Shown one piece after another: positions 22,355 to 53,500 of a stretch of 64,000 nucleotides of DNA; the stretch's first letter is position 1; every line of letters starts with the position of its first letter. The notes below the pieces were generated by a model. That model made no database searches. It saw nothing but the letters and a program-made list of their open reading frames with translations, and was not told the origin of the DNA. This DNA comes from Daphnia pulex (lineage: Eukaryota; Arthropoda; Branchiopoda; Diplostraca; Daphniidae). A program made the translations under genes and the position numbers. The stretch covers positions 4,588,001-4,652,000 of the forward strand of contig NC_060024.1 of NCBI RefSeq assembly GCF_021134715.1. Direction: 5' to 3'.

Positions 22355-24460
22355 TAGAAATTAAAGATTCGCGTCGGCATAGATAGGCTACAGAGTCCGT
22401 TTCGGCCCATCTCTCTTCTCTCCACGCTGTACAAACTCTTCTCTGGCTGCATCGCCTCCCAGAGCACCACGTTGGCTAGCGACAACGAGTGGCTTTCACC
22501 AGGGCAGAAAGGATTTCTCCCGGGGGTGCACGGCATACAGGAGCATACCATGCTACTTGAGGGCGCCATCGAGGAGGCCGGGTCTCAGAAAAGAAGCGCA
22601 ACCATCTGCTGGCTGGACCTGGACAATGCTTTCGACTCATTACCACACGACTACCCCAATCAGCTCTTCTGCAGTCTTCCAGTCCCTCCGGCCTTAAGGA
22701 GCATCCTGACTGACATCTACCAGGACAATGAGTTCCGATTCGTTGTCGACCAGGAGCTTGTGACTGTTAAATCGACCTCCGGAGTGCGTCAAGGTGACGG
22801 GCTAAGTTCTGTCATCTTCAATCTCGCCACGGAGCCTCTAGTCCACCGTGCTAAGGCAAAATCTAACGCTGGGTTTCAACTCTTCAATACCCGCCTCAAA
22901 TCCACTGCCCATGCTTACGATATCTCTGTGGCTGACTCCAACCCAATCAGCCTCCAATCCACCATTGATGGCCTAAATAGTACAGCCTCGATCCTTGGTC
23001 TCCCTTTTTATGGTAATAAATACTATTCTCTCATTATCACTAACGGCAGGGCCAGGACGTCGACGAACCACTCCATCAACGGTATCCATATTCGGTCACT
23101 TGAGTAGGGGGAGTACGATCATCAGATTCTAAGTGAATCATCAGATTCACCTTTAGACCGGCCACAGACCTCCGCGAGAAGCTAATAAAGGTTGCTGACT
23201 CCTTGCTTGCTCCTTGGCAGAAGTTGGAGGTTTTCCGCGCGCACTTCCTGCCATCTCCTTCGCATCACTTAGAATCCGGACGAGTTCAGAGGGGCTTCCT
23301 CAACGAGCTCAACACACGATGCGTGGAATTCCTCCGCCAGGTTTCATACGTCCCGCACACTACTCACACAGCTTTCTTGTTTGCGGATCACCGGGCTGGT
23401 GGGCTTGGCGCTTCACAGCTGAAAAAAGACGCCGATGTGTGAACGGTTGCCAGATCCGTTCACTGCTGGACAGCAAAGACCAAGTCGTCCGCCTCATGAC
23501 CAGAGCCCAGGGGTCTTGACCAAGCCACGTATGGTCCACTCCCCCTATCCAAATTCCTGCCTAGCTTAACACAAGGGGTCCTGTATGACAATCGGGTCTA
23601 CAGGTGTGGTCTGAACCCTTGGACTCGCACGCGGAAAGCAGCCTGGCGCCTACATGTAAAGATTGATGTATCCAGCGATAGTTCTCGGTCGAAAGTGATC
23701 GCTGACGACGTCTCCTGCCTGTCGACCAAGGCTATCCGTGGATTCAGGACGGTAATCAGGCGCCGCTGTACTACCGAATTCTCTAATGCCTCAAACAAAG
23801 GAAAAGTACCAAGAGGTCTCCTTCTGGATTCATCGAGCGATATCGCCAGACTGAAATCATCCCGCACTAAACTCAACTTTGAGGAATGGAAGCTGCTTCA
23901 TCACAGCCGACTACCAATCCTACCTCTACTCGGTAAACCTGGAATTTCTGCTCCTGACAAGAGATACCGCTGGTGCAGGGCAGACGCAGAGACCACATCG
24001 CATGTGATCAGCCATTCTCGAGTCGACCTGCCGGAAATTGGGCACCGCCATTACACAATTCTGGAAGAACTGACCAGGACCATCCGCAGGGCAGGTCACA
24101 CGGTACGTGTCAACCAGGTGTTTCCAGATACTACCCTCCGCCCGGATATCGTCAACACCTTAGCTCATCATCGACTTGACGATCCCGTTTGATGCCTCAG
24201 AATCCTTACAAGCTGGATTTGACCGTAAAGTTCTCAAATACGGACATCTTGGCCCAACACTTCCGGTAGTGATCGGCACTTTGGGTTCCTGGATGCCTTC
24301 CAACAATGCAGTGTCCAACTCCCTAAGCATCCAGCCTAATTCGTTGCGACGGTTCAGGCGAAGGAGTCAACTCGCAGTCATCCAGGGTACTATGAGGGTT
24401 GTCTCAAATCACATTCGTGTAGCCGACAACTATGAAGGTCTGGAACTGGCGTCCGCATAA
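22355..24460 (+). mobile_element. Decayed R2/NeSL-type non-LTR retrotransposon (RT plus endonuclease)
   Basis: 22,382-23,107 reads a reverse transcriptase. It has 'FRPISLLSTLYKLFSGCIAS', 'GQKGFLPGVHGIQEHTMLLE', 'ATICWLDLDNAFDSLPH' (first catalytic Asp) and 'GVRQGDGLSSVIFNLATEP'. The usual A-D-D catalytic box is 'AYDISVA', so one catalytic aspartate is lost. Downstream, in shifted frames, come 'LGASQLKKDADV' (23,400), then 23,598-24,192 with the zinc-knuckle region 'WCRADAETTSHVISHSRVD' (last Cys replaced by Ser) and 'TLRPDIV'. A final frame, 24,176-24,460, has 'MTIPFDASESLQAG', 'KYGHLG' and 'VIGTLGSWMPSNN'. This order (RT, CCHC, restriction-like endonuclease) defines R2-clade elements. There are at least three frame breaks and no 28S rRNA sequence at the flanks. 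The copy is 5'-truncated and inactive. Confidence 0.85.
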
Positions 24461-37929: not shown

Positions 37930-38366
37930 AAACATGAAATTTATATAATTATTATTAGAATTTTGCAGCGTAATTTAAAGAAATCGTTTTAACAGATTTA
38001 ATCCGGTTTTTAAGTTTAATCGTCTGCTGTAGTACTGCTGTGAAAAAATTCAAGCTACGATCATTTTTATTTATTTTAAAGTGTATTAACATTAAAATGG
38101 CAGGGAATAGTTTTGGGTCATCGAAGTGGACTTAAAAAGGAGAAACACGCGATTAGCTACTGAGGATTACAACTAACCGATTGATCTGTAAGTCTGTAAC
38201 TGGATAATTAACTTAACTGCAAATAAATAAAAAGAACTGTAGACGAACAAAACTGTAGACTATTGTAAACTGTATCTTTCAATAAGCGATGAATGAGTAT
38301 AATCAAATTATTACTTTTATAAGTTTTAATGATGAGCCATATATATAGGAATGACCAATTTAAACT
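37930..38366. other. Flank of the large transposon, no gene
   Basis: AT-rich, nothing recognised. Confidence 0.5.
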
Positions 38367-38374
38367 ATTACCAG
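38367..38374 (+). repeat. Left candidate target-site duplication ATTACCAG
   Basis: The identical 8-mer lies at 52,644-52,651 in direct orientation. Each copy sits exactly 23 bp outside the first base of the conserved terminal repeat ('agacactag'), on both sides. Equal offset and direct orientation argue against chance, but one 8-mer is not proof. Confidence 0.6.
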
Positions 38375-38398
38375 GGCATGCCTACTTTAGACCTAATA

Positions 38399-38660
38399 GA
38401 CACTAGACCTTTTAACATTTAGGCACTAGAACTTCACAATAGAACATAAAAATAAGTCAGTTCTAGTGTCGTCAAAAATTTACATTTTAAAATTTAGATA
38501 GGTCTAGTGTCTCTACTACTAGTTCTAGTGTCTTCGAAGACATTTTAAATTGTAACATTCAAAAATATTAAAAAATCCATATTGAATATTTAAATTCAAA
38601 ATTGTTACAATTTCAAACGAATTTAGTTCTAGTGTCTTATAACCTAGTTCTAGTGTTTCC
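38399..38660. promoter_or_regulatory. Left subterminal motif array (AGTTCTAGTGTC)
   Basis: About seven copies of a 10-12-bp core, (a/g)(g)t(t)ctagtgtc, occur on both strands: near 38,399, 38,423, 38,459, 38,500, 38,521, 38,625 and 38,646. Such clusters in MULE ends typically bind the transposase. The role is inferred. Confidence 0.6.
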
Positions 38661-38965
38661 ATGATAATGGTAAATTAAAAAATTAAAAAAGAAATTGTTT
38701 GTTCTATTGACCCAGCTAACACTATCAACGTTAAATTTTTTTGAATTGGATTTGAGATTTTAGAATTTCGAAGCTCTGGTGTACTTGATGGCGCCATCTA
38801 GCGATAGGTAGGCGAATGCCATCCATCTATCGGTCGTGGTTGTTGCCGTTGTTGCTCTGTCAAATCTGTTGCCATGGTGGTTTCAGAAGATCTTTTCCCA
38901 CAAGAACTTGCCTCGTGTGGTCCTAAAAGTCATTACTGATTTATTTTTTATTTTTCCAAACAAGA

Positions 38966-40342
38966 ATGTCTTGCAACGACGTAGATGAATACACAATGTA
39001 CCTTCAGTTGTACAAATGGTACAAACAGGATTGTGTTGAGATGGGAAAGGTTCCCAAAGAATTAATATCGTTTCTCGGACAGTTAAAAGCAAAAGCTCGT
39101 GGCCCTGGTAATGCTGTTTTTTTTAAAATAAATTGTGATCATACATATATCTAATTTGTGTTTTCATTACCTCTAGGTGACGATAGTCAGTTGAAGGGAA
39201 ACTTAACTGAATCGCAAGAAAGTAAACCATCTTTGGTCTCAGTCTTGGAACCTCCTTGTCCTTCACCGATGACAACCAAATTTGATAATGTTGCTGCACA
39301 TTTTACAACCAGCTCATCCTTTGGTCATTCAGCATTGAATCCAAAATCTGCTAACAGAGCCACAAATTGTCCAGCCTTAGATGGCATCAAACGAAAGCTG
39401 AGAACCATTGAAGGGAAAAGTGTTCCTACAGTTAAGAAAAGTATGGGGCTTTCAAATTTTTTTTCTTAGAATTATCAACTCAATTCTTCTCTAAAATTTA
39501 ATTTAGGATGCATAAACACATCCACATTTACATTACATGTATTTGTGTTCCCACACTTCGGCTGGTTAGGAAGTACAGCCACTACAGGAGAAAAGGCAGA
39601 CTTTTGTGACATGTTTGTTGCTCAGAGAGTTGTAACTTTTCACCTTGATCATAACGAAACGAAACACAAAAACGCAATTTTGAAGTAATTTAAATTATTA
39701 AACTATTAAGATATTCAAATTTAACTTGAAACATTTTCAGTGCGTATGGCGATGTTTTCCTAGAGGACTTTGTGGCCCAAAGAGCTGTCAGCAATGGAAG
39801 TAGATTGACCTCTCCTAGAAATTTAAGCACTGAAGAACTTCAAAAGGTGTAAAATAATTAAAACTCACTTCTATTCATTTTTATTTATACTTATGTGGGA
39901 AAATAGGAAAGCGGCTTACTGTGGTGCACCTCAATAAAACCTTTGAAGTTGGAATCGGGTGGACAACGGTGTGCGCATTGTTTTCAAACTTTATCGAATT
40001 CTGTCGACAGCTACCAACTACATCAACTTGGTTGTCAACGTCGAAATGAATCCCTGGAGATTTTCGATGAAGAATCAGACGAATTCCTTCTTAATTCATC
40101 ATGTGCTTCTTTTCCCATTGACTTTGTTGACCATGAAAACGTCATCACACAAGTGACCATGGCTCATAAAGTTGTGGAGCATGCTGCAACACGAACTGCA
40201 TCTTAAGAGGAGCGTAGACTTCACTGTCTTTTGGCGGTGGAAAGAAGATTACCACCACTGCCTTGCACACCACCATTAACCAAGATGTTTACAGAGATCG
40301 TATCTGTGGGTCACGTTCCAACCGATCCTCCAACTCCTTCAG
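38966..40342 (+). pseudogene. HECT-type gene, left-arm copy, truncated
   Basis: Five exons with canonical, phase-matched splice sites: 38,966-39,107, 39,177-39,440, 39,507-39,684, 39,741-39,846 and 39,907-40,342. They have the same lengths as exons 1, 2, 3b, 4b and 5b of the right-arm copy. The start is ATG followed by 'SCNDVDEYTMYLQLYKWYK'. Exon 5 contains the C-x2-C…H-x4-C finger ('CAHCFQTLSNSVDSYQLHQL' then G-C). In exon 5 a TAA at 40,204-40,206 replaces the CAA seen in the right arm (a C-to-T change). The exons for the HECT domain are missing altogether. The copy can at most make a short protein of about 310 residues with the finger and no ligase domain. Such a product could compete with the full protein, but that is speculation. 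Confidence 0.8.
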
Positions 40343-40583
40343 GTGATTTAAAGTCCACGTTCGTCCACTCTCCCTCCTTTTTTCTAAATTATCTTATCCT
40401 TTTTAATCAAGCATGTTTTCTCTTTAAACAACCATCTAGTTAAAGTTAAACCCTGTTCCTAAAATCAAGATTACTTTCCTTGTCACAAGACTCATACTCT
40501 GCAGAATTTGTGCTTTATTTCAATAAAATAAACAGAAACTCGAAGCGATCAATCTTACAACAAATGTTGCTATTTTTTTGTTG

Positions 40584-40915
40584 AATGATTAACTTGTTAT
40601 ATTACTTAAGTATTTTTGGAAACTCCTGAACTGAATAACTGATAGCCGTCACTCATTTAGATTCAAATTTTCTCGTCATGACAACGCTGTCCCACATTTA
40701 AACAGAAAACAGCTGTTTCAACCACGTCCTCGATTCCACGAAGACGATAGCCATTGGGCTAAAGTGTGACCATCTTGTTTTTTACGGGAATGTGGGATTG
40801 TGAATTGAAACAAAAGTACACGCTTGTATCTTGTAAGTATTACGTTTGACTATAGTGTAATTTACGTTTACTTAATGTGAGTTTTTCAAGGAGATCGTCT
40901 TAGGACAGTTGAGTT
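40584..40915. promoter_or_regulatory. Spacer upstream of the MULE transposase gene
   Basis: Between the inner end of the left arm and the transposase ATG. It presumably holds the transposase promoter. I see no convincing TATA box or initiator. Confidence 0.3.
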
Positions 40916-43233
40916 ATGGCCGCTTTAGACCACGGAATATTATTGGTGTGTAGAACAGTGCCTGGTTCACGTTTTCGATCGTCTGTACTGGCATGTGAGC
41001 ACAATTACACATGGCATTTGAACGCCGATAGGTAATAGCATTATTCGGTATTCTTAGTATGTTTTAATGTATTTTTTTTCTTTTAATTGTATCGTTATTA
41101 GATTTTATCGTTGTTCAGAAACGAAACGTGGATGCTCAGCAAAGATTTATGTTTTAGAAGACGGTACTTACTGGATGACAAATGGGCACAATGGCCACTT
41201 AAATAAGGAACATGAAATCAAGTTGAACGCGGTGAAACGTGAAATGTGTATCCGTGCTAGCAATAGCAGAGTACCTTTCAGATTAATTTTTGATGAAGTT
41301 AGAGAAATGTAAGTTTTAATGTTTTAAAAGTTATTTGTGATGCTCAATATGCTATTACCATTTAAAGTTACCCTGACGTTGTAATCGGATATAATGGTAA
41401 CATTCAACGATCCATGCAGCGTGCAAGGAGTTCAGCGCAGCCTAGAAATCCGAGAACACTGGATGAAGTGGAGGCATTATTGGTTGCTACACCACTTTAC
41501 AAGTATTAAATATTCCAATTTTATTAAATGGTATCTTACTTATCTGTTACTTGTAAGTCGAACAAGAGATGGCAATTCACAATTCTACCATGGAAGGGTA
41601 TCTACTGCTACTGGTACTGCACTCATATTTATTAGCCTTTCCATGCTACCGGTATTGTGTACATCGCAGGAAGTGGCATGTGATGCTACTTTTGCAACTT
41701 TACCCTTGTTGTTTTCGCAAATGTTCACCGTGCATGTTTCAGCTTACACATATGTAAGTGCTATTTTGTCATTCAATTGCCATTTCTGTGTGTCAATAAT
41801 TTTTACTATTTTTGTCCCATTAGATGTTTCCATTAGCTTACGCCCTGATGACAGAAAAAACGGAAGCGTTATACACTTTAGTGCTGGGACGTATAATTGA
41901 AGTTTTAAATGCACTAACAGGTGGAGTTCCCGCAACTATAATATCTATGATAGCAGATTTCGAATATGCGATATTAAATGCGATGGAAACCACATTTCCA
42001 GCAGGCCATTCTAGGGGATGTTGGTATCATTTTGGACAGGTTAGATTACTTTTATTAACATACGCTTAAAAATTCTTGAAAGGTAAATTAGAAAAACATT
42101 TTATTATTTAGGCGATCTATAGGAAAGTTTGTGATGAGGGATTAAAACAAGCCTATGATGAAAGGCCCAATGTGCAAAAGCTAATAAAAATGTTGATTGC
42201 ACTTGCTCTTCTACCCGTGAATCAAGTTGATGCTGGATTCTTGGTAAATTTTGAATGTTTTCTTTATGTATTCTATGAGGAAATTATTTTAAATTTCTTT
42301 GGCTACAATTACAGCATATCAGGCAACAGTCTCTGATCTTACTTGCAGAAGAAACGCCTCAGGTGCGACAAGCTATGCATATCATTTTCGAATATATGCA
42401 AACCTATTGGTTGGATACTGTTACACCGGAGCGTTTTTGCGTTCAGGGACATTCACGTCGAACAAACAACGAGGTAGAATCGTTCCATCGCTGGTTCAAC
42501 GCACGATGTGGGAAATATCACCAGAACTTTTGGACTTTCTTAGGTACGCGTTTAATAAAATAAAAAATGTGTACTCCAGTTGTATTTAATTTCCGATACT
42601 ATTCTTTGTTTCAGAGTACTTACAAAAAATTGAATCTTTAACATTGAAAGATTTTGATATTGCAAGAGCAGGAGGTCAAATTCGACGAGATCAGGGTGTG
42701 ACGCAACGCCAAAAAGATGAGAGAATCCGGCATTTTGGTCGACAGCTTGCTAATGGGCAAATGCCACTTGGTCAGTATTTGGAAATGTGTTCATCGTTTT
42801 TCGAACCTGCACTACCACCTCCTGCAATACTTATTCCACTTGTACCTGCGCTGCCTGTGCATTTGGGTTCCGACGAGGATCACATCAATTCAGACAACTC
42901 TTCGGTAAGTACTTATCATTTTTCGGTACCTGATTATTCATAATTCTGTTCTCGTTTAATCAGAATGAAGAAGAAAATTACGCTGGTCATGCTGGTGGTG
43001 TTCATGGAAGGGGTCGAGCACCAAGAAGACGTCAAGTGAATCGCGAAGCTCAAAGGGTGCGAAGAGGAGTAAGAAGACATGGAGGAGTCAGAGTAGTTGG
43101 AGAAATTATAGAAGCACAAGTAGACGAAGCGGAACTGCGGCGAGCCCGTTTTCTACTGTTACAGGAAATGGGCAGAGAATTCACTATGCCACAGGCAGCC
43201 GAAATATTGCAAGCGGCTGCTGTATTGAATTGA
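40916..43233 (+). CDS. MULE-family transposase, nine exons, intact
   Basis: Exons 40,916-41,031, 41,102-41,308, 41,368-41,502, 41,558-41,753, 41,824-42,039, 42,112-42,243, 42,315-42,543, 42,615-42,904 and 42,964-43,233 join with GT-AG introns of 55-72 bp and preserve one frame: 1,791 nt, 596 residues. N-terminal FLYWCH-type zinc finger (about residues 15-65): 'YTWHLNADRFYRCSETKRGC', then 'TNGHNGHLNKEHEIK'. The DDE catalytic core shows 'VACDATFATLP' (first Asp), 'MIADFEYAILNAMETTFP' (second Asp), 'GCWYHFGQAIYRKV' (the C/H motif after it) and 'RTNNEVESFHRWFNARCGKY' (catalytic Glu). The C-terminus is Arg-rich. Exons alone keep frame while introns are full of stops, which shows purifying selection or recent activity. 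It would bind the ends of the surrounding element and move it. A domesticated transposase is the main alternative, but its place between inverted arms argues for an autonomous element. Confidence 0.9.
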
Positions 43234-44100
43234 ATGCTGTGTGCAGTATTTGTGTAACATATCATGTTTCAATACACTTCTGCTATCTGGACTGAATTAA
43301 CCTTAAATTTTAACGATCAATCGTTTCGTTCGTTCTAACGTACAAAACAGCTTTTGGTTTATTTTGTTAAACGAAAAACTTGTTGATTCCCTCTGCGCTG
43401 TGACCTTCACTATCCTATGTCATCCAGATATTTGAAAATGACCAGCAGAATTTATCGTACGACATTTGCATTTGTTTTGGAAATTGAGAACAACCTCTTT
43501 TGAAATGAAGTTTACCTGCTTTCTTGTAATAATCAGCAACCAGTTTTGGTGGTGGGGAAGGGGGGAGAACAACAGAGAACTTTTGATATTTAAAATTACA
43601 ATTTTTGTGATTAGTGAGTTTTGGTTAGTTTAGATTTCGACATAATTTATAACAGAACAATTAATATCCGAATTGTCCGCCATAGTCTTTTCTTCCCGAA
43701 TTTTCAGCTTCTATGCTCGCCGCATTGAACTGGATGGTAGCAGACGATAGCCTATTACCGTCCGGGACGTAGGAAATTTCTGTACACATGGCCAGCCCAA
43801 AAACATATTGAAACCATTAGAACAGATTCTCTTGCCAAATTATCGTGCGGGTAAACATTTCAAAATTTTCCTGTTTTCTTACTTGATGGATCGTGAAGGC
43901 CTCGTACGACGAACCGGTTTGCCCGTACTGTGTTTGGGAAGTAAGCATAAAAGAAAACAAGTAAAAAAAAAAGAAATGTGGTCAGTTAGCGGGCCGAGAA
44001 TTTCTTTTGGTTGTTCGTGAAAGAATTCCGTCTTGTGCAACAGTGTCCAATATCGTTTGAAACAATTTTCTGTAAAAGTCTACGACTCTTTAACTTCCTC
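43234..44100. other. Spacer between transposase and Ser/Tyr-repeat ORF
   Basis: The transposase 3' end lies here; no obvious AATAAA is seen close to the stop. A plus frame at 43,808-44,020 shows no recognisable motif. Nothing else is seen. Confidence 0.4.
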
Positions 44101-44101
44101 A

Positions 44102-44788
44102 CTAGGCACTTTGACGGAATTGTATAATTGGGGTACATGCCTGGCCAACTCGGAAATGGTCTCGTGCATAAATATTCTGTCGATGAGATGATTCGAAGGA
44201 ATCACGAACCGAATAATTGGGTGTTCGCTGCGCCATCTTCTCATTCCCGTGTGATGAATAATAGTTGTTTCGACTTCTGAATGTTTCACGAACTACCGGC
44301 TGGTATGTTTGCTCTCTGTGCCGATAATTCCGCTGTTCAGTCGAATGACTTGTGTGCCGACAAAAGGTTGCTGTACTGTAAGGACTATCAATCGGATCGC
44401 TGCTGGAAGAGGAATAGCCTTGGTCGCTACTGGGAGAGGAATAATTCGTGCCATCACTACTGGGTGAGGAATAACTTGGGCTATCACTGGGAGAGTAATA
44501 GTTCTGGCCAATACTGCTGGGAGAGGAATAACTCGGGACACTGCTGGGTGAGGAATGGCTTGAGTCACCACTGGAAGGAGAATAGCTCGGGTTATTACTG
44601 GCAAAGTAATAGTTCTGGCCAATATTGGTAGAAGAATAACTCTGATCACTAACGCCGTGTGATGTTGGTACAGCGTACACCACAATGGACTCAAAGCCAG
44701 CTCCTAGTCTACGGACGAGTCCGTTGGGAACCGAGGTGGCTATATTTAAAACGATTGCGAAACCTGTCAAGTGCAGTTCGATTTGCAT
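44102..44788 (-). CDS. Ser/Tyr-rich repeat protein, unknown function
   Basis: Single open frame of 228 codons. The start Met is followed by a hydrophobic stretch ('LHLTGFAIVLNIATSVPNG') that could be a weak signal peptide. Residues about 50-130 are imperfect repeats of the pattern SYSSPSS(D/I)GxNY, encoded by a minisatellite of about 30 bp. The C-terminus is basic and hydrophilic with many Arg/Tyr/Ser. No family is recognised. Such repeats occur in secreted or cuticle-like matrix proteins and in low-complexity disordered proteins. The plus strand through the same repeat is also open (44,281-44,631), as repeats often allow, so coding is not certain. It lies inside the 14.3-kb element as possible cargo. 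Confidence 0.45.
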   Translation of the reverse strand: MQIELHLTGFAIVLNIATSVPNGLVRRLGAGFESIVVYAVPTSHGVSDQSYSSTNIGQNYYFASNNPSYSPSSGDSSHSSPSSVPSYSSPSSIGQNYYSPSDSPSYSSPSSDGTNYSSPSSDQGYSSSSSDPIDSPYSTATFCRHTSHSTEQRNYRHREQTYQPVVRETFRSRNNYYSSHGNEKMAQRTPNYSVRDSFESSHRQNIYARDHFRVGQACTPIIQFRQSA

Positions 44789-45329
44789 GGCGTGAAAGAC
44801 GGTGTGAACGTTATGCAGTCTGTGACCGACTGAGTAGCCTGAACATTTTTCGCAGCAACTTATTGCAACCAGGAATCCAACGGTGTGTTCAAGATCCAGT
44901 TACGAAAGATAACAAGATTGAAGCGAGATAGGATAACTAACCATAGAGAGACATGGAGGGTCGTGCGTTGAATATGCAATTCAATTTCGAAGAGTGAAAA
45001 ATCCGCGCAAAGTTCCTTTGATGTGAATCAAGTCAACTGTCATGCAGGACAGGTTGCGCTCTTTTTTCTTTCTTTTTTTAATTTGTGCCTTGCGTCAATT
45101 TGATCTGTCAAGCTATTCATGCAAAGAAGGAAATCTTGTTTTTTTTCCTTTGTAGAAATATGATTTATTTTCATATGGGCATACACATACATAGAAAGGT
45201 CATTTAAGAAAAGAAAAAGTACAGTGAAAGAACACAATCAATATTTTGTTATTAAGTCGTTTTATTATCATCATTTATACTCTTTGTCTGCTATTCAGGA
45301 ATTTTTTGTTCTTGTTTGAGATTATTAAT

Positions 45330-46070
45330 TATATCCAACTTGGATCAAAGGGTTGACACTTGTTGCCATCGCCCCATTCCGACTCCAGTTCCTTATAGGA
45401 CTGAAAATTCCCATCTTGTTGCTGCTGCAGTCTTCGACACCAATTACAAAATCCATGACGTGACATGTCCTCCACGCTGTATTCCACATCATAATAATCT
45501 TTCCACTAGAAATACTCGTTGTTTAGCGTGTCGTTTGCATCGAGTAATTTGAGATAAGCAACCAATTCTTTTGATTTGAATTTGCGAGCGTCCATGTACG
45601 GATGGGGCGGTGCGTGTTGAGTGTAAGTTACTTGAGTGTCTATAGACCTATCTTAGTTATAAAGCAGTTTGGCCCGAAAAGGATGTTAATAGTCCTTTTT
45701 TGGGGGGGCTGGAGGGATAGGTGGGATATTTTCAAGCAATCACAAGTTATCAAGCATTTACGCACATGTAACGAAGTTTCAGAACGCCAAATAAGATTGC
45801 GCGTTTTCACACTTTCTTTTTCTTGATTACGCAATCTTACCGAAAGGTTTATTTAGGAACTTGATCCAAAACTACCAGACAAAATTAAAATGTATTCAGT
45901 TTTCTTTTTTTTTTATTCGAATATCTTCATTTGATTTGGCCAACAAAATTCGTCTATTGATGCTATACGCTGATTGCTTATTCGTTATCTTTGAGCGGAC
46001 GACCCCATCCATCATCGGAGATTATAACACAATCTTTATTGTCGTAAACGAAGGGAGTGTTTATCATTGT
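45330..46070 (-). pseudogene. Alpha-1,3-fucosyltransferase, truncated second copy
   Basis: 45,330-45,650 is a diverged copy of the C-terminal coding region of the neighbouring fucosyltransferase. It shares 'cgagtaatttgagataag', 'ggggcggtgcgtgttgagtg' and 'caaaatccatg.cgtg'. 45,950-46,070 resembles the N-terminal region ('gagcggacga.cccatc'). The middle, including the GT10 signature, is missing, and frame breaks are present. It lies in tandem just downstream of the longer copy, in the same orientation, so a local duplication inside the transposon followed by a large deletion is likely. Confidence 0.7.
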
Positions 46071-46282
46071 TTAAGGTTGAGCGGTCGTTTTGTGTCGAAT
46101 GTTATTTTTTTTTTATTAGTGAATCTTAATAAGTTTTTTTTCGGTTAAAGCTATGATGATATTGTTTCCATAACCAATTTGAGATTGTCTTGTTCGTATT
46201 TGCTGTACCGATGAGATGATTTAAACAAACTTTTGGCGCTCTTCGTGCTAAGGCAATCTAGATGTTATTTTACCACTTTGAA

Positions 46283-47650
46283 TTATGATTTATTTTTATT
46301 TTTATAGATATAACTACAGACAAGAAGGCTAATACAAAGAAGGGCCAAGAACAAGAAGCACAATGTTTTCTGCCAGTGCTCATTGAGAAATGTGTTTTCA
46401 CTAAGATCTGGTATCCAACTGGGGTCAAACGGTTGGCACTTGTTTTTTTCGCCCCATTCAGAATCTAGGTCTTTATACGATTTTAACTCTCCGTCTTTTT
46501 GCTCGTGCAGTTTTTGACACAGGTCACAAAATCCATGGTGCGTCGTGTCTTCAATGCTGTACTCCACGCGATAGTAATCCTTCCACCAGAAATACTCGTT
46601 GTAAAGCGTCTCGTTTGCATCGAGTAATTTGAGATAAGCGGCCAATTCTTTTGGTTGGAATTTCCTGGCGTCGATGTACGAATGAGGCGGTGCGTGTTGA
46701 GTGTAATCGGCTCCTCCGTAGACCACCGGAACGATGTCGTGTCCCATAATTTTGAAAAACTTTTCAGTGACGTAATCTGGGCAAATGGCATTTTCGAAAG
46801 ACAAGTAGAATTTGTAGGTCGACTCCAACATGTCATAGCATTGGGGATTGGAGATATGCAATGGGTGTTTTGCACAAGTCAAGTATTAGCCACATTGACC
46901 GAAAATATCGACGTCGATGTATTTGCTCAGCTCTTTGACGTACGTTTCTCGTTGGCTGTGTGTATCACAATGGGAAGCCATCCAGGCAACTAGTTTGGTT
47001 TTATTGCGTACGTTTTCTGGCGGCGAACTAAGGCGAGCTTTCTTCTTAAACGGCTTATCTCTTCCGGTTTGCTAGGAGCGTTTTCTTTTGGAATAATCCG
47101 ACCGTAGAGTAAGCGAATATCAGAGTCTATTCTGTACGTCATTGACCAATTGAAAAAATTAGCTAATCGAGTCATGTTTTAATACGATTGGAACGCTGGG
47201 GGAGCTTCTTGTGAAGCGAAGACGATTCGTTGACTTTGATTTCGTTTGATTGCAAACTCGGGCATCTTCGGTTGATCGGCCGACACGAATTCGTTATTAA
47301 ACAAGACGACGATTGCGTCGTAATATTCGAGCGGACGATCCCATCGGTTGTCGACTATCTCACGTCGAGTGTAAGTGCAATTCTTTTCGACGAACACGTC
47401 TTTGCCCGTACCAAAGGATGTCACTTCCACTCGGCCTTTTTGGGACTTTAGCGTGCCTCCGGAAGCGTTCCACAATAAAATGCTTTTCGTTTCGTTCTGC
47501 TGCTGAATGTATTGTTCCCATTGTACTTGTATTTTGAATGGTGGTGGTGCCGTTACGCGTAACAAATTGTACCAAATCGAACAACCCACTAGAGTAACAA
47601 AAGCGGCAATTGTAACTAATGAACGCGTTTTGCGTTTGAACCACTGCATG
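46283..47650 (-). pseudogene. Alpha-1,3-fucosyltransferase (GT10), broken
   Basis: Golgi type II enzyme that would add fucose from GDP-fucose to N-glycan GlcNAc. From 47,649 it has a short cytosolic start and a signal anchor ('LVTIAAFVTLVGCSIWYNLL'), then 'ILLWNASGG', 'DRPLEYYDAIVVLFNNEFV' and 'QRIVFASQEAPPAFQSY'. An in-frame TAA follows (47,179-47,181), then 'MTRLANFFNWSMTYRIDSDI'. A one-base insertion near 47,040 shifts the frame. The new frame reads 'KTKLVAWMASHCDTHSQRET', 'VDIFGQCG', a TAA, 'CAKHPLHI', and the GT10 signature 'LSFENAICPDYVTEKFFK', then 'PVVYGGADYTQHAPPHSYID'. So there are two stops and one frame shift, with all motifs otherwise well kept: a young pseudogene. It is intronless. 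The C-terminus ends in a second hydrophobic segment ('TLCFLFLALLCISLLVCSYI'), unusual for this enzyme class. It lies inside the MULE-like element and is probably captured host sequence. Confidence 0.85.
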
Positions 47651-47699
47651 TCCGTGCACTTGAACCTCCCGAACAAGGCACTCTAAAAGCGACATCACA

Positions 47700-48121
47700 A
47701 AAGTCGAGCCAGTTATTTTAAACTTTGGTAATCAGCGTTGGTTTTTATCAATGTTCTTCAGACTTGATAATTTTTTTGTTTTAAGTTGTTGACATACTGT
47801 ATTGTTTGATTTTCAGACAAACAGATATTGAAACCCCTTGTTATCTTGAGTGTTCAGGTAACGTGAACTATTCGAGCTTGCGACACTTTGGCCTTGTCGG
47901 TCGCCCCACAAATGGGAACTGTTTGTCATTCAGTCCCCGCTTCTCGCCATAGACCTTGTCTTATCTGTCGAAACCTGATGTTTTTCTTTGCGCATTTTGT
48001 GTCCGAACCACTGCATGGTGGTTTGGCGTCCACTTGAATCTTACGGACTGATGGAGGAAAGGACAAAGTAAGGAGGAAAGACACAACAGGAAAGACACAC
48101 AGTGTTGAGTGTCTTAAAAAG
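47700..48121. other. Spacer upstream of the fucosyltransferase copy
   Basis: May hold remnants of the captured gene's promoter. A short repeat of 'ttgaacctcc/ccactgcatg.tg' near 48,008-48,040 echoes 47,640-47,670, which suggests a third scrap of the gene's 5' end. Nothing else is seen. Confidence 0.4.
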
Positions 48122-48396
48122 AACAAAAAAATAGCAAAATTTGTTGTAAGATTGATCGCTTCTAGCTTCTGTTTATTTTATTGAAATAAAGAGCACAAAC
48201 TCTGCAGAGTATGAGTCTTGTGACAAGGAAAGTATTCTTGATTTTAGGAACAGGGTTTAACTTTAACTAGATGGTTGTTTAAAGAGAAAATATGCTTGAT
48301 TAAAACGGACAAGATAATTTAAAAAAAGGAGGGAGATTGGAATTGAATGCTGAGAAAGAGTGAACAAATCAGACTATAGCAATATGAGCAGAGCAG

Positions 48397-48591
48397 TTAC
48401 ACGAATGTGAAGCCAGCAACAAGCAGTTCAATGGGGTCGATACATACTTCAGTCAATTCTTGTTTGGTAATAAAAACGAAGACAACAGTGCGCGTCTTTA
48501 GCAGGACGAAGTTGGGGGTGATGGGGTCATCAATCCTTGTAGAAGGAATCATTGCTGATCCAGTGAGGAACACAAACAATTTAGATAACAC
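48397..48591 (-). pseudogene. Duplicated HECT C-terminal exon piece lacking the catalytic cysteine
   Basis: Diverged copy of the end of exon 8: 'LFVFLTGSAMIPSTRIDDPI' and 'FITKQELTEVCIDPIELLVA', ending 'GFTFV' and a stop as in the main copy. The segment with 'RTCPEFAELLFPVY' that holds the HECT catalytic Cys is deleted. It lies about 210 bp downstream of the main stop. It could act as an alternative last exon, but no clear acceptor is visible, so I treat it as a broken duplicate. Confidence 0.7.
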
Positions 48592-48799
48592 ATAAAATTA
48601 GGTTGGCCATTCAGCAAACCAGACAAGGTTATCAATGAAACTAGATCGTTGTTTTAAGAGAAAACACAATCGATGAAAAAAAAACATTAAAAAGGATAAC
48701 GGACAATTTTTTTAAAAAAAGGGAGAAGAGTGGAACGGAATGTAGATGAAAAGGGAACAAATCAGGACTTAAGCAAGATGAGTGATTCCAAATAAGCTG

Positions 48800-51700
48800 T
48801 CACACGAATGTGAAGCCAGCATCTAGCTGTTGAATAGCGTCGATCCATACTTCAGTCAACTCTTCTTTAGTGACATAAACAGGGAAGAGGAGTTCCGCGA
48901 ATTCGGGACATGTCCGGACCACCGGGCGCCTCTTTTCATTTTCTTGCAGCTGGACGAATTTCACTAAAATTAGGTAATCCAATGAAGAAGGAATCATTGC
49001 TGATCCAGTGAGGAACATCAACACTTTAGACAACACATCCGGTGAGGTTAGCCATTCAGCAAACCACTGTCTGCTCTCCCTTTCTGCACGTTTGATTGCT
49101 GTGTTTTTAGTTTTGGACATTTCAGACCAATCCAGAATCTCCATAACGTGCTCGGGAGTTAAGGGACGACAATTAAACAACGATACACACTCCAGGTCTG
49201 ACAAAATCTAAATACGACCACAAATGTAGACCACAAATTTAGAATCGAGATTTTGTATTAAAAATACCTGGTCAGCTGCATGCTGTGAGACCAAACCAGC
49301 AATATAAGGGTGTTGTTCGGCACCGGGTTTCTGGATCGCTACCAAACGGTTGTAGACTGGTAACATCCACCACGGACAAAGAGAAGTTTGCACAATAGCA
49401 AGACCTGATGGAAAAAATGGCCATCATTGAAACATTTTTACCGAACGTGAGTTAATTTCAAAATTACCAGATATTTGACCAGCGGCAAACATTTCGCTAT
49501 TCCAATCTTCTTGGGAAAAAAGAAAATGCTCTGAATCACTTGTGCCATCGTGCGAAAGGACAGACAATCTTGTATAGACCAATTTTTCAAGCAGCGTTGA
49601 CAAGAGATCTTTTAAAGGGCCAACCCCTATTCCCAGTTCCTGACTAAGCGATCCATTCTCATTTCGATTTTGGAAAGTAACTCCAATGAATTTATTCTTG
49701 TTTCTCCTGAAGTCTCCAGTTTTCATTAGGGCCAGGAAATCATGGATCAAATATTCCCCTCTTCTTACTCGAACTGAATTTACTCCCATTTCCATGACTG
49801 CCTTTCTATGTTCTTCCAGCTTTGCAATCGCTATTTGAAAAATGAGAAAATTTATTTATTGCTTATGAGAATGTTTTAAAACTTTAAATCACCCGAAGGA
49901 GTTGGAGGATCGGTTGGAACGTGACCCACAGATACGATCTCTGTAAACATCTTGGTTAATGGTGGTGTGCAAGGCAGTGGTGGTAATCTTCTTTCCACCG
50001 CCAAAAGGCAGTGAAGTCTACGCTCCTCTTGTGACGCAGTTCGTGTTGCAGCATGCTCCGGAACTTTATGAGCCATGGTCACTTGTGTGATGACGTTTTC
50101 ATGGTCAACGAAGTCAATGGGAAAAGGAGCACATGATGAATTAAGAAGGAATTCGTCTGATTCTTCATCGAAAATCTCCAGGGATTCATTTCGACGTTGA
50201 CAACCAAGTTGATGTAGTTGGTAGCTGTCGACAGAATTCGATAAAGTTTGAAAACAATGCGCACACCGTTGTCCACCCGATTCCAACTTCAAAGGTTTTA
50301 TTGAGGTGCACCACAGTAAGCCGCTTTCCTATTTTCCCACATAAGTATAAATAAAAATGAATAAAAGTGAGTTTTAATTATTTTACACCTTTTGAAGTTC
50401 TTCAGTGCTTAAATTTCTAAGAGAGGTCAATCTACTTCCATTGCTGACAGCTCTTTGGGCCACAAAGTCCTCTAGGAAAACATCGCCATACGCACTGAAA
50501 ATGTTGCAAGTTAAATTTGAATATCTTAATTATTTAATTATTTAAATTACTTCAAAATTGCGTTTTTGTGTTGCGTTTCGTTATGATCAAGGTGAAAAGT
50601 TACAACTCTCTGAGCAACAAACATGTCACACAAGTCCGCCTTTTCTCCTGTAGTGGCTGTACTTCCGAACCAGCCGAAGTGTGGGAACACAAATACATGT
50701 AATGTAAATGTGGATGTGTTTATGCATCCTAAATTAAATTTTAGAGAAGACCTGAGTTGATAATTCCAAGAAAAAAAAATTTTAAAGCCCCATACTTTTC
50801 TTAACTGTAGGAACACTTTTCACTTCAATGGTTCTCCCTTCTAATGGTATAAGAAAAGGTTAATCTCTTGCATCATGCAAAATTGCAACTTCGGAATCCT
50901 CCGACTCGTACTCCATGCCTTGATATCTTCGTAGACATACAAGTTGATGTTTTTTGAAGCTGTCTATAGAATTTGCTATAGTTTTAAAACAATTTGCACA
51001 TCGTTGGTTATTCAAGAATTTGTTCCCTTTGAAATTTAAAGGTGTTGTGGAGGTACACCACAACAGCCCAACTCCCTGTAATTTCAGACGATAGAACATT
51101 TAATTGGATAGAAATGATAGATTTTAATAATTTCACACCTTCTTAAGTTCATCAGTACTCAAATCAAGAAGAGATAACAGTCTTCTTCCATTGCGGTTAG
51201 CTCTTTGGGCCACAAAGTCCTGTAGGGAAATATCAGCATACATACTGCAAAATTTTTCTAGTTAAATTGAGTTATTAACAATTTCGTTATTTAAATTACT
51301 TTAAAATGGCTGTTTTGTGTTCCGCTTCACTGTGTTCAACACAGAAGGTGACAACTCTCTGAGCAACAAAAATGTCAGCAATATCGGACTTCTCAACAGG
51401 TGTAGCTCTGGTTCCCAGCCAGCCCAGGTGAGGTAACACAAATACATGTAATGTAAATGTGTTTATGCATCCTAAATTTAATTTTAGAGAAGAATTTAGT
51501 TGATAATTCTAAGCATAAAAATTTGAAAGCCACATACGTTTCTTAACTATGGGAACGTTTCTGCTTTCAATAGTTCTCAGCTTTCGTTTGAAACCATTTA
51601 AGGCAGGAAAATTTGTGGCTCTGTTAGCAGATTTTGGATTCAATGCTGAATGACCAGAGGATGAGGTGGTTGTAAAATGTGCAGCAACATTATCAAATTT

Positions 51701-52012
51701 GGTTGTCATCGGTGAAGGACAAGGAGGTTCCAAGACTGAGACCAAAGATGGTTTACTTTCTTGCGATTCAGTTAAGTTTCCCTTCAACTGACTATCGTCA
51801 CCTAGAGGTAATGAAAACACAAATTAGATATATGTATGATCACAATTTATTTAAAAAAAAAAAGCATTACCAGGGCCACGCGCTTTTGCTTTTAACTGTC
51901 CGAGAAACGATATTAATTCTTTGGGAACCTTTCCCATCTCAATACAATCCTGTTTGTACCGTTTGTACAACTGAAGGTACATTGTGAATTCATCTACGTC
52001 GTTGCAAGACAT
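48800..52012 (-). CDS. Zinc-finger HECT-domain ubiquitin-ligase-like protein of the transposon
   Basis: Exons (minus): 52,012-51,871; 51,801-51,538; 50,728-50,551; 50,495-50,390; 50,328-49,893; 49,830-49,468; 49,404-49,268; 49,207-48,800. Exons 3-5 also exist as an upstream tandem copy (separate entry). All junctions are GT-AG and phase-consistent. The N-terminal region has no known fold. Exon 5 holds a C-x2-C…H-x4-C finger ('CAHCFQTLSNSVDSYQLHQL' then G-C), similar in spacing to UBZ-type ubiquitin-binding fingers. Exon 6 is the HECT N-lobe ('VRVRRGEYLIHDFLALMKTG'), and exon 7 continues it ('GLAIVQTSLCPWWMLPVYNR'). Exon 8 is the C-lobe with 'VLMFLTGSAMIPS', the catalytic loop 'RRPVVRTCPEFAELLFPVY' and the tail 'GFTFV'. 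In HECT ligases that Cys takes ubiquitin from E2. HECT genes of the G2E3-like type are known in some animal transposons. Its role in transposition is unknown. Confidence 0.8.
50860..51471 (-). pseudogene. Upstream tandem duplicate of HECT-gene exons 3-5
   Basis: Exon-like blocks 51,471-51,300, 51,244-51,139 and 51,075-50,860 repeat exons 3-5 at about 60-70% by eye, with splice sites conserved. The zinc finger is kept in altered form: 'CANCFKTIANSIDSFKKHQL' then V-C. This copy of exon 5 runs into a stop at 50,860. It is followed directly by a copy of the end of exon 2 ('SVPTVKKS'), which marks the duplication joint near 50,850. If this set is used, the protein ends before the HECT domain; if it is skipped, the full HECT protein is made. 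The arrangement offers two alternative isoforms, but no transcript evidence is available. Confidence 0.7.
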
Positions 52013-52329
52013 TTTTGTTTGGAAAAATAAAAATAAATCAGTAATGGCTGATAGGACCACACGAGGCAAGTTCTTGTGGGAAAAGATCTTCTGAAACCAC
52101 CATGGCAACAGATTTGCCAGAGCAACAAAGGCAACAACCACGACCGATAGAGATGGCCATCCTATCGCTAGATGGCATTCGCCAACCTATCGCTAGATGG
52201 CAGCATTAAGTACACCAGGCTCTAAGAGGATATTTTTGAAAATCGAAAATCTCGAATCGAAATTTAAAAAATAAATTTAACATTTAACACTCATAGTGTT
52301 ATCGAAGACAATAGAACAAACATTTCTTT

Positions 52330-52622
52330 TTTAACTTTTAAATTAAGGAGACACTAGAACTAGCTTATAGGACACTAGAACTAAACAGTATTTAAAACTA
52401 TGTTAAAACTTTGACAATTTGGAATTAAAAAATTTAATTTGGATTTTGTAAATTTTATAACGTTAAAATTTAAAATGTCTTCGAAGACGCTAGAACTAGA
52501 AGTAGAGACACTAGACCTAGCTAAATTTTAAAATGTAAATTTTTGACGACACTAGAACTGACTTATGTTTATGTTCTATTGTAAAGTTCTAGTGTCTACA
52601 TGTTAAAAGGACTAGTGTCTAT
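52330..52622. promoter_or_regulatory. Right subterminal motif array (GACACTAGAACT)
   Basis: Reverse-complement counterpart of the left array. Copies of gacactaga(a/c)ct-like cores occur near 52,350, 52,370, 52,489, 52,508, 52,549, 52,586 and 52,612. Likely transposase-binding sites. Confidence 0.6.
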
Positions 52623-52643
52623 GTGGTTCATTGTCGCTTTCCC

Positions 52644-52651
52644 ATTACCAG
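52644..52651 (+). repeat. Right candidate target-site duplication ATTACCAG
   Basis: Partner of 38,367-38,374. Confidence 0.6.
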
Positions 52652-53500
52652 ACAAGTAAAAAGTATGCTAGTCACTGTTGAACTAGCTTGAAGTATATTT
52701 TTAAATATATTTTACCTAAAATACACCATACTTTCAATTATCAAGCATCCGCCTACCTTACAAAAAGACAAGAAAATATGCCAACTTATACTTAGTTCTG
52801 GATTGCTTGCCGCTCGCTTTGCTTTAAGTTTTAAACATCAAGTTTTGTACTTCGAAGCATTGCAAGTATGGGCGTTGCTAGAGTTCCGTCTCTCTTTTTT
52901 ATCAGAATCGAGTTCAACTTTCCGCAAGGTTTTTCCATACTTGTGAAGCTTTAACCTAGTACCGCGCAACCTTGTTACAAGTTTATTTTTTTGGACAAGC
53001 TAACCGTCGCGTACGGGTGATGAAATTTTGGGATGGCTATTTTATAAGTAGTGGCTCTCCACCTACCTCAATCATCATACGTTTTGTATTAACCTACGAA
53101 TACGAACTCAAAAACGGAATACGAACTAAAAAAAACGGGAATGAATACTCAACCAATGCGAAAACTTCCCGGAACGAAAAAAGAATTTCCTTTAGTCAAA
53201 TCCAAAATCGACAATAAGAGACCGGTCAAATTGGTAAAACCAACAGTCAATGCGACCAAACCAATGACTTTGAATCCGGATAAAATCCATTTAGTACCAG
53301 CTAATTTCACCATGGCTGATGGGGCCCCACAAATGCCCAAAATTGGATTCCGTTTTCAAGGATTTGGCTCGACCTCAATCACGGCAGCCATTCCCCAATC
53401 CCAGACTATCCGTCCATTACCAACTCATTTGGACAAAAAGATCCATCCACGTGATTGGACTTTTTCCCCGAAACCTGAATTGACAATCGCTGCTAAAAAG
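52652..53500. other. Right flank of the transposon with one open frame
   Basis: A plus frame at 53,141-53,548 (basic, Pro/Lys-rich: 'KRPVKLVKPTVNATKPMTLN') has no recognised domain, and its end overlaps the antisense TTC30 pseudogene. It could be an exon of an unknown gene or chance. Confidence 0.35.

What the first reader, a model, noticed from the sequence alone, without database searches (positions are those of the whole stretch)
38375..52643. Large MULE-like transposon whose inverted repeats carry a HECT ubiquitin-ligase gene and whose core carries captured genes
Seen: long inverted arms, direct 8-bp ATTACCAG at equal offset outside both arms, a complete MULE transposase between them, a HECT-domain gene in the arms and fucosyltransferase copies in the core. 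Known: MULEs have long TIRs, 8-11-bp duplications and capture genes in plants. Inference: an animal MULE pairing a transposase with a ubiquitin-ligase-like protein and carrying host glycosyltransferase cargo would be an unusual multi-gene element.
Basis: partly seen in the sequence, partly recalled or inferred. Interest (0 to 1): 0.92.

Follow-up and report, generated by a model that had tools for sequence, protein, structure and literature searches.

The report
Animal jumping gene carrying ubiquitin ligase
A 14.3-kilobase jumping gene in a water-flea-like genome carries its own cutting enzyme, a complete gene for a ubiquitin-ligase-like protein and a copied piece of another chromosome's sugar-enzyme gene cluster, which lets gene theft by an animal jumping gene be studied base by base.

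Summary
Window 38375-52643 (14,269 bp) is a mobile element flanked by ATTACCAG. Four of four related unoccupied sites read have one ATTACCAG. The genome also holds two identical 4,173-bp non-autonomous copies with the same ends and their own 8-bp duplications, a one-ended 99% identical copy on C9 and an end relic on C6. Inside lies a nine-exon MULE transposase (596 aa). An eight-exon gene (677 aa) with a HECT C-lobe and its catalytic cysteine runs inward from the right end; only its N-terminal half is repeated in the left arm. The core (43.34-47.99 kb) is captured from a fucosyltransferase cluster on C7 (71-86% identity in pieces); its larger fucosyltransferase is broken. The outer 21 bp of the two ends are not inverted repeats of each other, yet each is conserved. 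Of 31 HECT places compared, only the window's has a MULE within 76 kb. Best reading: an autonomous, gene-capturing MULE with a HECT gene that is a passenger (more likely) or an accessory; its role is open.

The parts
38367..38374 (.). left target-site duplication ATTACCAG
   Evidence: single in four of four empty sites read
52644..52651 (.). right target-site duplication ATTACCAG
38375..52643 (.). whole element, 14,269 bp
   Evidence: bounded by TSDs; C5 and C1 copies end at the same bases
38375..38395 (+). left outer end, 21 bp, not an inverted repeat of the right end (10 of 21 match)
   Evidence: 3 places genome-wide at up to 3 mismatches, all exact; reversed-pattern control 1
52623..52643 (-). 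right outer end; its first 19 bp exact in 5 places genome-wide
   Evidence: 13 places at up to 2 mismatches, control 2
38375..40582 (+). left arm: inverted repeat with decayed N-terminal half of the HECT gene (one stop); lacks the HECT catalytic exons
48122..52643 (-). right arm with complete HECT gene; 48342-49880 has no counterpart in the left arm or in the C9 copy
40916..43233 (+). MULE transposase gene, nine exons, 596 aa; DDE residues D195, D263, E389 by alignment (assignment mine)
   Evidence: exons; Pfam MULE; Daphnia relatives; C9 copy differs at 6 of 1,791 coding bases
48800..52012 (-). HECT-like gene, eight exons, 677 aa, cysteine 642 in RTC motif
   Evidence: model; Pfam HECT; aligned with HUWE1, E 0.19; Daphnia magna protein, 58% over the C-terminal half
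50860..51471 (-). diverged tandem copy of HECT exons 3-5, ends in a stop; skipped in the 677-aa model
48400..48621 (-). degenerate second HECT C-lobe exon
   Evidence: 53% identity to residues 586-673 of the 673-aa model
43340..47988 (.). captured segment matching the C7:1502761-1511347 fucosyltransferase cluster piece by piece, net about 1.2 kb shorter near 45.7 kb
46283..47682 (-). fucosyltransferase (GT10) pseudogene, stops and frame change
   Evidence: Pfam 6.1e-47 for the 46283-46885 frame; 86% to C7:1509881-1511250; frames
45332..45626 (-). second fucosyltransferase fragment

Best explanation
A complete, recently active, gene-capturing Mutator-like element. Shown: exact ends, an 8-bp target duplication with matching empty sites, a full-length MULE transposase frame, other copies that use the same ends, and a core copied from a fucosyltransferase cluster on another contig. 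Inferred: the MULE transposase binds a repeated motif in the long subterminal arms (TCTAGTGTC occurs four times in the first 426 bp of each end), cuts at the conserved left and right outer ends and reinserts with an 8-bp stagger; shorter copies move in trans. Inferred: the right arm holds the promoter of the HECT gene, whose start codon begins at base 632 from the right end, so transposase (+) and HECT (-) read towards each other, as mudrA and mudrB do in maize MuDR (that layout is recalled). The HECT gene most likely began as an acquired host or element gene; its protein was under selection in its past, and its present role is probably none or minor.
For: Ends and TSDs. Empty sites. Shared ends. 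Two copies identical over 4,173 bp on different contigs with different TSDs. C9 copy 99.2% over 6,327 bp with no match over 16 bp between its 1-kb flank and the window's. Transposase frame and relatives. Captured core with the source cluster still present, and the same MULE-to-core junction in C9. HECT frame and selection: (tandem exons 3-5 dN 0.26-0.29, dS 0.72-1.28).
Against: The outer 21 bp of the two ends are not inverted repeats, unusual for a MULE, though Tm1 of nematodes has asymmetric outer motifs. Only one copy in this genome has both the transposase and both ends. No zinc finger was confirmed. No expression, excision or activity data. The gene structures are my splice models, without transcripts.
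Confidence: 0.88

Rival explanations
1. The HECT protein is a working accessory protein of the element, as mudrB is in MuDR: a ubiquitin ligase that alters transposase level or a host silencing factor.
For: Intact 677-aa frame with the catalytic cysteine; N-terminal exons lie in both arms; purifying signal between tandem exon copies; a 469-aa Daphnia magna relative, 58% identical, ten member sequences. Other MULEs carry OTU or SET domains or second ORFs (PMC6446971 passages).
Against: 1 of 31 HECT places has a MULE within 76 kb; C9 copy and left arm lack the catalytic exons and share one stop; left against right arm dN/dS about 0.4 for exons 1-5 and 0.5 for exons 1-2, so recent constraint is weak or unclear.
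Confidence: 0.3
2. The HECT gene is only a captured passenger, like the fucosyltransferases, still young enough to be open.
For: The same element demonstrably carries other captured DNA; no recurrent HECT-MULE pairing found in this genome; two of the three places with this gene lack its catalytic exons.
Against: Unlike the fucosyltransferase, the 677-aa frame is intact, and no donor locus with the same N-terminal half was found (matches to residues 1-378 only in the window and C9).
Confidence: 0.6
3. Not one element: a small MULE nested in or beside duplicated host genes, joined by chance.
For: Tandem and inverted duplications inside; the core resembles C7 sequence.
Against: Both outer ends with one target duplication, empty sites without anything between, and the same transposase-to-core junction at a second place.
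Confidence: 0.03

Closest known systems
Phantom/Muta MULEs of animals (Muta1 of Aedes aegypti, PMC5225508, passages read; group 20 of PMC6446971, passages read)
   Same: MULE transposase; 8-bp duplications are in their range (Muta1 8 or 9 bp, group 20 8-10 bp); Muta1 has arms over 100 bp with short subterminal repeats and non-autonomous relatives sharing ends; group 20 includes Crustacea
   Different: Muta1 is 3,198 bp with TIRs of 145 bp; here 14.3 kb with HECT and a captured core. Clade membership not tested by a tree
Arthropod MULE survey 2026 (PMC13359780, passages and part of Table 1 seen)
   Same: same superfamily, TIRs plus transposase
   Different: complete elements there span 1,875-9,972 bp; longest TIR given as 1,193 bp in text and total row, 1,527 bp in the Hemiptera row; main text has no Daphnia, HECT or ubiquitin. 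This one is longer
Tm1 Mutator/Foldback elements of root-knot nematodes (PMC3169594, passages read)
   Same: long composite inverted arms with asymmetric outermost motifs, transposase
   Different: duplications mostly 9 bp, asymmetric motifs of 7 bp; the words HECT and ubiquitin do not occur in its main text
Pack-MULEs of plants (PMC6431247 passages, otherwise recalled)
   Same: captured host gene pieces between TIRs
   Different: Pack-MULEs take their transposase in trans; this element carries its own with the cargo
MuDR of maize (mudrA/mudrB; PMC6446971 passage, layout recalled)
   Same: two genes, one transposase and one of another kind
   Different: mudrB is of unknown function in that passage and is not a HECT protein (recalled)

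Membership tests
Mutator-like elements (MULE) | transposase with MULE domain | tested here: met
   Pfam PF10551 42.5 bits, cut-off 27.6; D195, D263, E389 kept in every row of A1 that covers them
Mutator-like elements (MULE) | 8-11 bp target-site duplication | tested here: met
   perfect 8 bp in 3 of 3 copies with both ends; empty sites
Mutator-like elements (MULE) | long terminal inverted repeats | tested here: inconclusive
   arms of 2.2 and 4.5 kb alike at 82-97% in pieces, but the likeness begins only at base 22; the outer 21 bp match at 10 of 21
Mutator-like elements (MULE) | zinc finger (FLYWCH or other), frequent but not universal | tested here: inconclusive
   none by Pfam in this protein; 1 of 4 Daphnia relatives scanned shows a sub-threshold FLYWCH
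Phantom/Muta clade | transposase groups with Phantom/Muta in a tree | not tested
   no reference transposases of the clade were fetched
Pack-MULE | non-autonomous, with host gene fragments | tested here: not met
   the window element encodes a transposase; the C5/C1 pair is nearer the definition, but see Noticed in passing
HECT ubiquitin ligases | HECT C-lobe with catalytic cysteine near the C-terminus | tested here: met
   Pfam over cut-off for positions 193-305 of 306; cysteine 642 of 677 in register with the HUWE1 HTC motif, though at E 0.19
HECT ubiquitin ligases | N-lobe that binds E2 | tested here: inconclusive
   not matched by Pfam; structure model of the Daphnia magna relative failed (mean pLDDT 37.6); profile of 4 rows found no solved structure
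HECT ubiquitin ligases | ubiquitin transfer activity | not testable with these tools
   needs protein
GT10 fucosyltransferase | intact reading frame | tested here: not met
   stops and frame change

The most novel reading that the evidence does not exclude
A new lineage of autonomous animal MULE in which a transposase and a HECT ubiquitin ligase form a two-gene system: the ligase, driven from the arm, marks the transposase or a host silencing protein for turnover and so sets the rate of jumping, while the element also ferries pieces of chromosomal gene clusters.
Probability: 0.25. Interest if true: 0.82.

Novelty: new variant of a known kind. Interest (0 to 1): 0.6.

Why it matters
Gene capture is well documented for plant MULEs (PMC6431247 passages) and, as far as I recall, thinly for animal ones. 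Here ends, empty sites, source cluster and mobile relatives are all in one assembly, so capture by an animal MULE can be studied base by base. If the HECT protein acts, it would be a transposon-borne ubiquitin ligase, testable by one cysteine change. My ten paper searches listed no title or abstract start that reports HECT in a MULE; they cover open-access papers only, some lists were cut (one search showed 15 of 258), and only five papers were opened, by passages.

Tried and rejected
Segmental duplication instead of transposition: rejected by empty sites and by the unrelated 1-kb flank of the C9 copy. Chance ATTACCAG: rejected likewise. Recurrent HECT-MULE module: looked for and not found. 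I compared 106 MULE positions (all 55 rows and 51 of 88 rows, the other 37 being exons of places already listed; 78 clusters) with 31 HECT places (24 picked from the 62 rows, one per cluster, and 7 outside the element); only the window's HECT has a MULE within 76 kb, the next are 76.3 and 90 kb. The C9 copy's HECT part was left out as the same family. Searches are lower bounds by the tool's own statement (one search scored 73 of 185 candidates). Divergent HECT copies at C8:1405662 and C8:1207917: no MULE match in the 10 kb fetched around each. The 673-aa HECT search found no protein at E 0.001 among 7,999 scored; the C-terminal half found two. HECT relatives in viral contigs: none. Profile searches of solved structures: none for A2 or A1. 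Structure model too poor, so no fold search was run. Inexact right ends: of 13 places 5 are exact; of the other 8, I looked at 3 (C4 and two on C2): no HECT and no significant MULE match near them, and the arm searches do not list them; 5 were not looked at. A FLYWCH finger seen by eye was not supported by Pfam. A first reading of exon 6 that stopped 12 bases early (673 aa, and the searches that used it) was replaced by the 677-aa one.
Full report
What was claimed.

Boundaries. ATTACCAG stands at 38367-38374 and 52644-52651. The window has 13 copies of this 8-mer against a shuffled mean of 1.93, so the pair alone would not convince. I joined 300 bases of left flank, ending in one ATTACCAG, to 300 bases of right flank and searched the whole genome. 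Of 11 matches, two are the window's own flanks. C10:5084016-5084599 matches query bases 1-599 at 92%; C12:3647546, C10:5312144 and C8:895377 match 101-600 at 87-92%; C4:8963596 matches 101-460 at 75%; four short pieces match near the last four. I read the junction in four of these five; all four have a single ATTACCAG in unbroken sequence; C4 was not read. The element therefore inserted into a copy of a low-number repeat and duplicated 8 bp. Its length is 14,269 bp.

Family in the genome. The genome (G000, 133.19 Mb, 13 contigs) is unnamed; 14 of 14 transposase relatives listed are from Daphnia species, and size and contig number fit Daphnia pulex (recalled), so I call it Daphnia-like. Searching with 601 bases of each end gave 8 matches each. 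The left 21-bp end occurs in 3 places, all exact, at up to 3 mismatches (control 1); the right 19-bp end is exact in 5 places, C1, C5, C6, C8, C9, of 13 at up to 2 mismatches (control 2). C5:8954286-8958458 and C1:2969644-2973816 are identical over 4,173 bp, end at the same bases as the window element, and have their own perfect 8-bp duplications CCTGTTAT and CACAGATA. No transposase match is listed in them. That is recent movement by the same ends. The C9 copy has the right end, HECT N-terminal exons, transposase and part of the core, 99.2% identical over 6,327 bp, stops matching at C9:5475207 (window 45721) and has no left end and no second TTACAAAG up to 5485000. C6 has a right-end relic of 205 bp.

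Ends. The arms are alike from base 22 inwards: 82% for 22-1685 of the left arm, 97.4% for 1026-1980 (these overlap because the right arm holds a tandem copy), 94.6% for 1990-2208. The outermost 21 bp agree at 10 of 21. In C5 and C1 both arms are the window's right-arm type at 99%, yet each keeps its own outer end. So the arms seem to have been homogenised while the outer ends stayed different, which suggests that the two ends are read differently (inference). Tm1 elements of root-knot nematodes show asymmetric 7-bp outer motifs (PMC3169594, passages).

Transposase. Nine exons with GT-AG borders, 40916-43233, 596 aa, no internal stop. Pfam MULE 42.5 bits over the 27.6 cut-off. Fourteen database proteins match among 8,000 scored, the best by E-value 53% identical over 74% of the query, from Daphnia magna. 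D195, D263 and E389 are kept in every row of the alignment that covers them (calling them the DDE triad is mine). The C9 copy differs by 6 of 1,791 coding bases, three amino acids, no internal stop; one change, E265K, lies two residues from D263. A zinc finger was not confirmed.

HECT gene. Eight exons, minus strand 52012-48800, 677 aa (exon 6 was extended by 12 bases after the relatives P0015 and P0016 showed four residues missing). Pfam HECT scores 42.6 bits for the last exon's frame and 38.3 for the 673-aa model (cut-off 23.9), but only over profile positions 193-305 of 306. Against solved structures the single sequence aligns with HUWE1 at E 0.19, not significant, with the catalytic cysteine motif in register; a profile of four rows found none. 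The protein ends GFTFV, with phenylalanine fourth from the end as in active HECT ligases (importance recalled). A 469-aa Daphnia magna protein is 58% identical over the whole C-terminal half and keeps RTC. The arms do not repeat the whole gene: the left arm and the C9 copy both lack window 48342-49880, which holds the catalytic exons, and share one stop. A diverged tandem copy of exons 3-5 (50860-51471) and a degenerate C-lobe exon (48400-48621) lie beside the gene. dN/dS: tandem exons 3-5 0.29/0.72 by NG86 and 0.26/1.28 by YN00; left against right arm exons 1-5 0.023/0.056; exons 1-2 alone 0.041/0.078; against the decayed copy at C8:1207917 dN 0.31, with dS not computable for the joined pieces and two of three exons and 0.42/1.61 for the third. 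So the protein was under selection in its past; recent selection is weak or unclear.

Core. Window 43340-45247 matches C7:1502761-1504764 at 78%. By the loci, 43862-45626 matches about C7:1503327-1505117 at 78%, 45769-46220 about C7:1506489-1506919 at 71%, 46250-47988 about C7:1507066-1508861 at 77%, and 46210-47759 also C7:1509802-1511347 at 84.5% (C7 positions are worked out from locus starts). The order is kept, with about 1.2 kb less sequence near 45.7 kb; because the source is a tandem cluster and the larger gene is closest to its third copy (86%), the exact donor is not settled. Sequence between the genes came along, so this is capture of genomic DNA, not a retrocopy. The larger window gene has stops and a frame change. 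The C9 copy has the same transposase-to-core junction, so the capture came before these two copies separated.

HECT and MULE as a pair. I compared 106 MULE hit positions with 31 HECT places (24, 7). Only the window's HECT lies within 76 kb of a MULE (7 kb); the next are 76.3 and 90 kb. The C9 copy, same family, was left out. The lists are lower bounds, as the tool states.

Mechanism. Shown: insertion with an 8-bp duplication, shared ends, copies in new places, captured cluster DNA. Inferred: cut-and-paste by the MULE transposase acting on the outer ends and on the motif TCTAGTGTC, four copies in the first 426 bp of each end; mobilisation of the short copies in trans; transcription of HECT from the right arm. 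Not known: whether HECT acts. I weigh passenger 0.6 against accessory 0.3.

Literature. Ten searches of open-access papers were run and five papers opened by passages. PMC13359780 (passages, part of Table 1): complete arthropod MULEs 1,875-9,972 bp, main text without Daphnia, HECT or ubiquitin. PMC6446971 (passages): extra ORFs and domains include mudrB, mutB, OTU, SET; the main text has no HECT, ubiquitin or Daphnia. PMC3169594, PMC5225508 and PMC6431247 (passages). Novelty is therefore a variant: a MULE with an extra enzyme type and a size I did not find described.

Noticed in passing
C5:8954286-8958458 and C8:12664886-12668094 (L028, L065): The interior of the 4,173-bp non-autonomous copies also occurs at C8 (arms 96% and 82%) where its left side lacks the 466-bp end (the right side was not read, and searches list no end there), so one inverted-repeat element seems to have been wrapped by the ends of another. 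A weak RRM-like fragment in it (E 0.02, below cut-off) lies in a stretch 83% like C6:5776705.
   Followed up: partly
38375-38395 and 52623-52643: Left and right outer 21 bp differ from each other but each is conserved across copies, although the arms just inside seem homogenised.
   Followed up: partly
C8:1405206-1407276 and C8:1207431-1209429 (L050, L051): Two decayed copies of a second HECT subfamily, 95% identical over 1,865 bp, nearer to the Daphnia magna protein P0015 (up to 93% in an exon) than to the window's HECT; reverse-transcriptase-like frames, named by eye, lie near both.
   Followed up: partly
44102-44899: Tandem repeat of about 27-30 bp read as a serine/tyrosine-rich frame, inside the captured core and matched in part in the C7 cluster.
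   Followed up: no
22358-24192: Reverse-transcriptase-like reading frames outside the element (named by eye).
   Followed up: no
flanks of the insertion, 38075-38374 and 52644-52951: The element sits in a repeat with five relatives in the genome; in four of them the first part of the flank lies about 3-4 kb away from the rest, so that repeat itself varies by an internal stretch.
   Followed up: no
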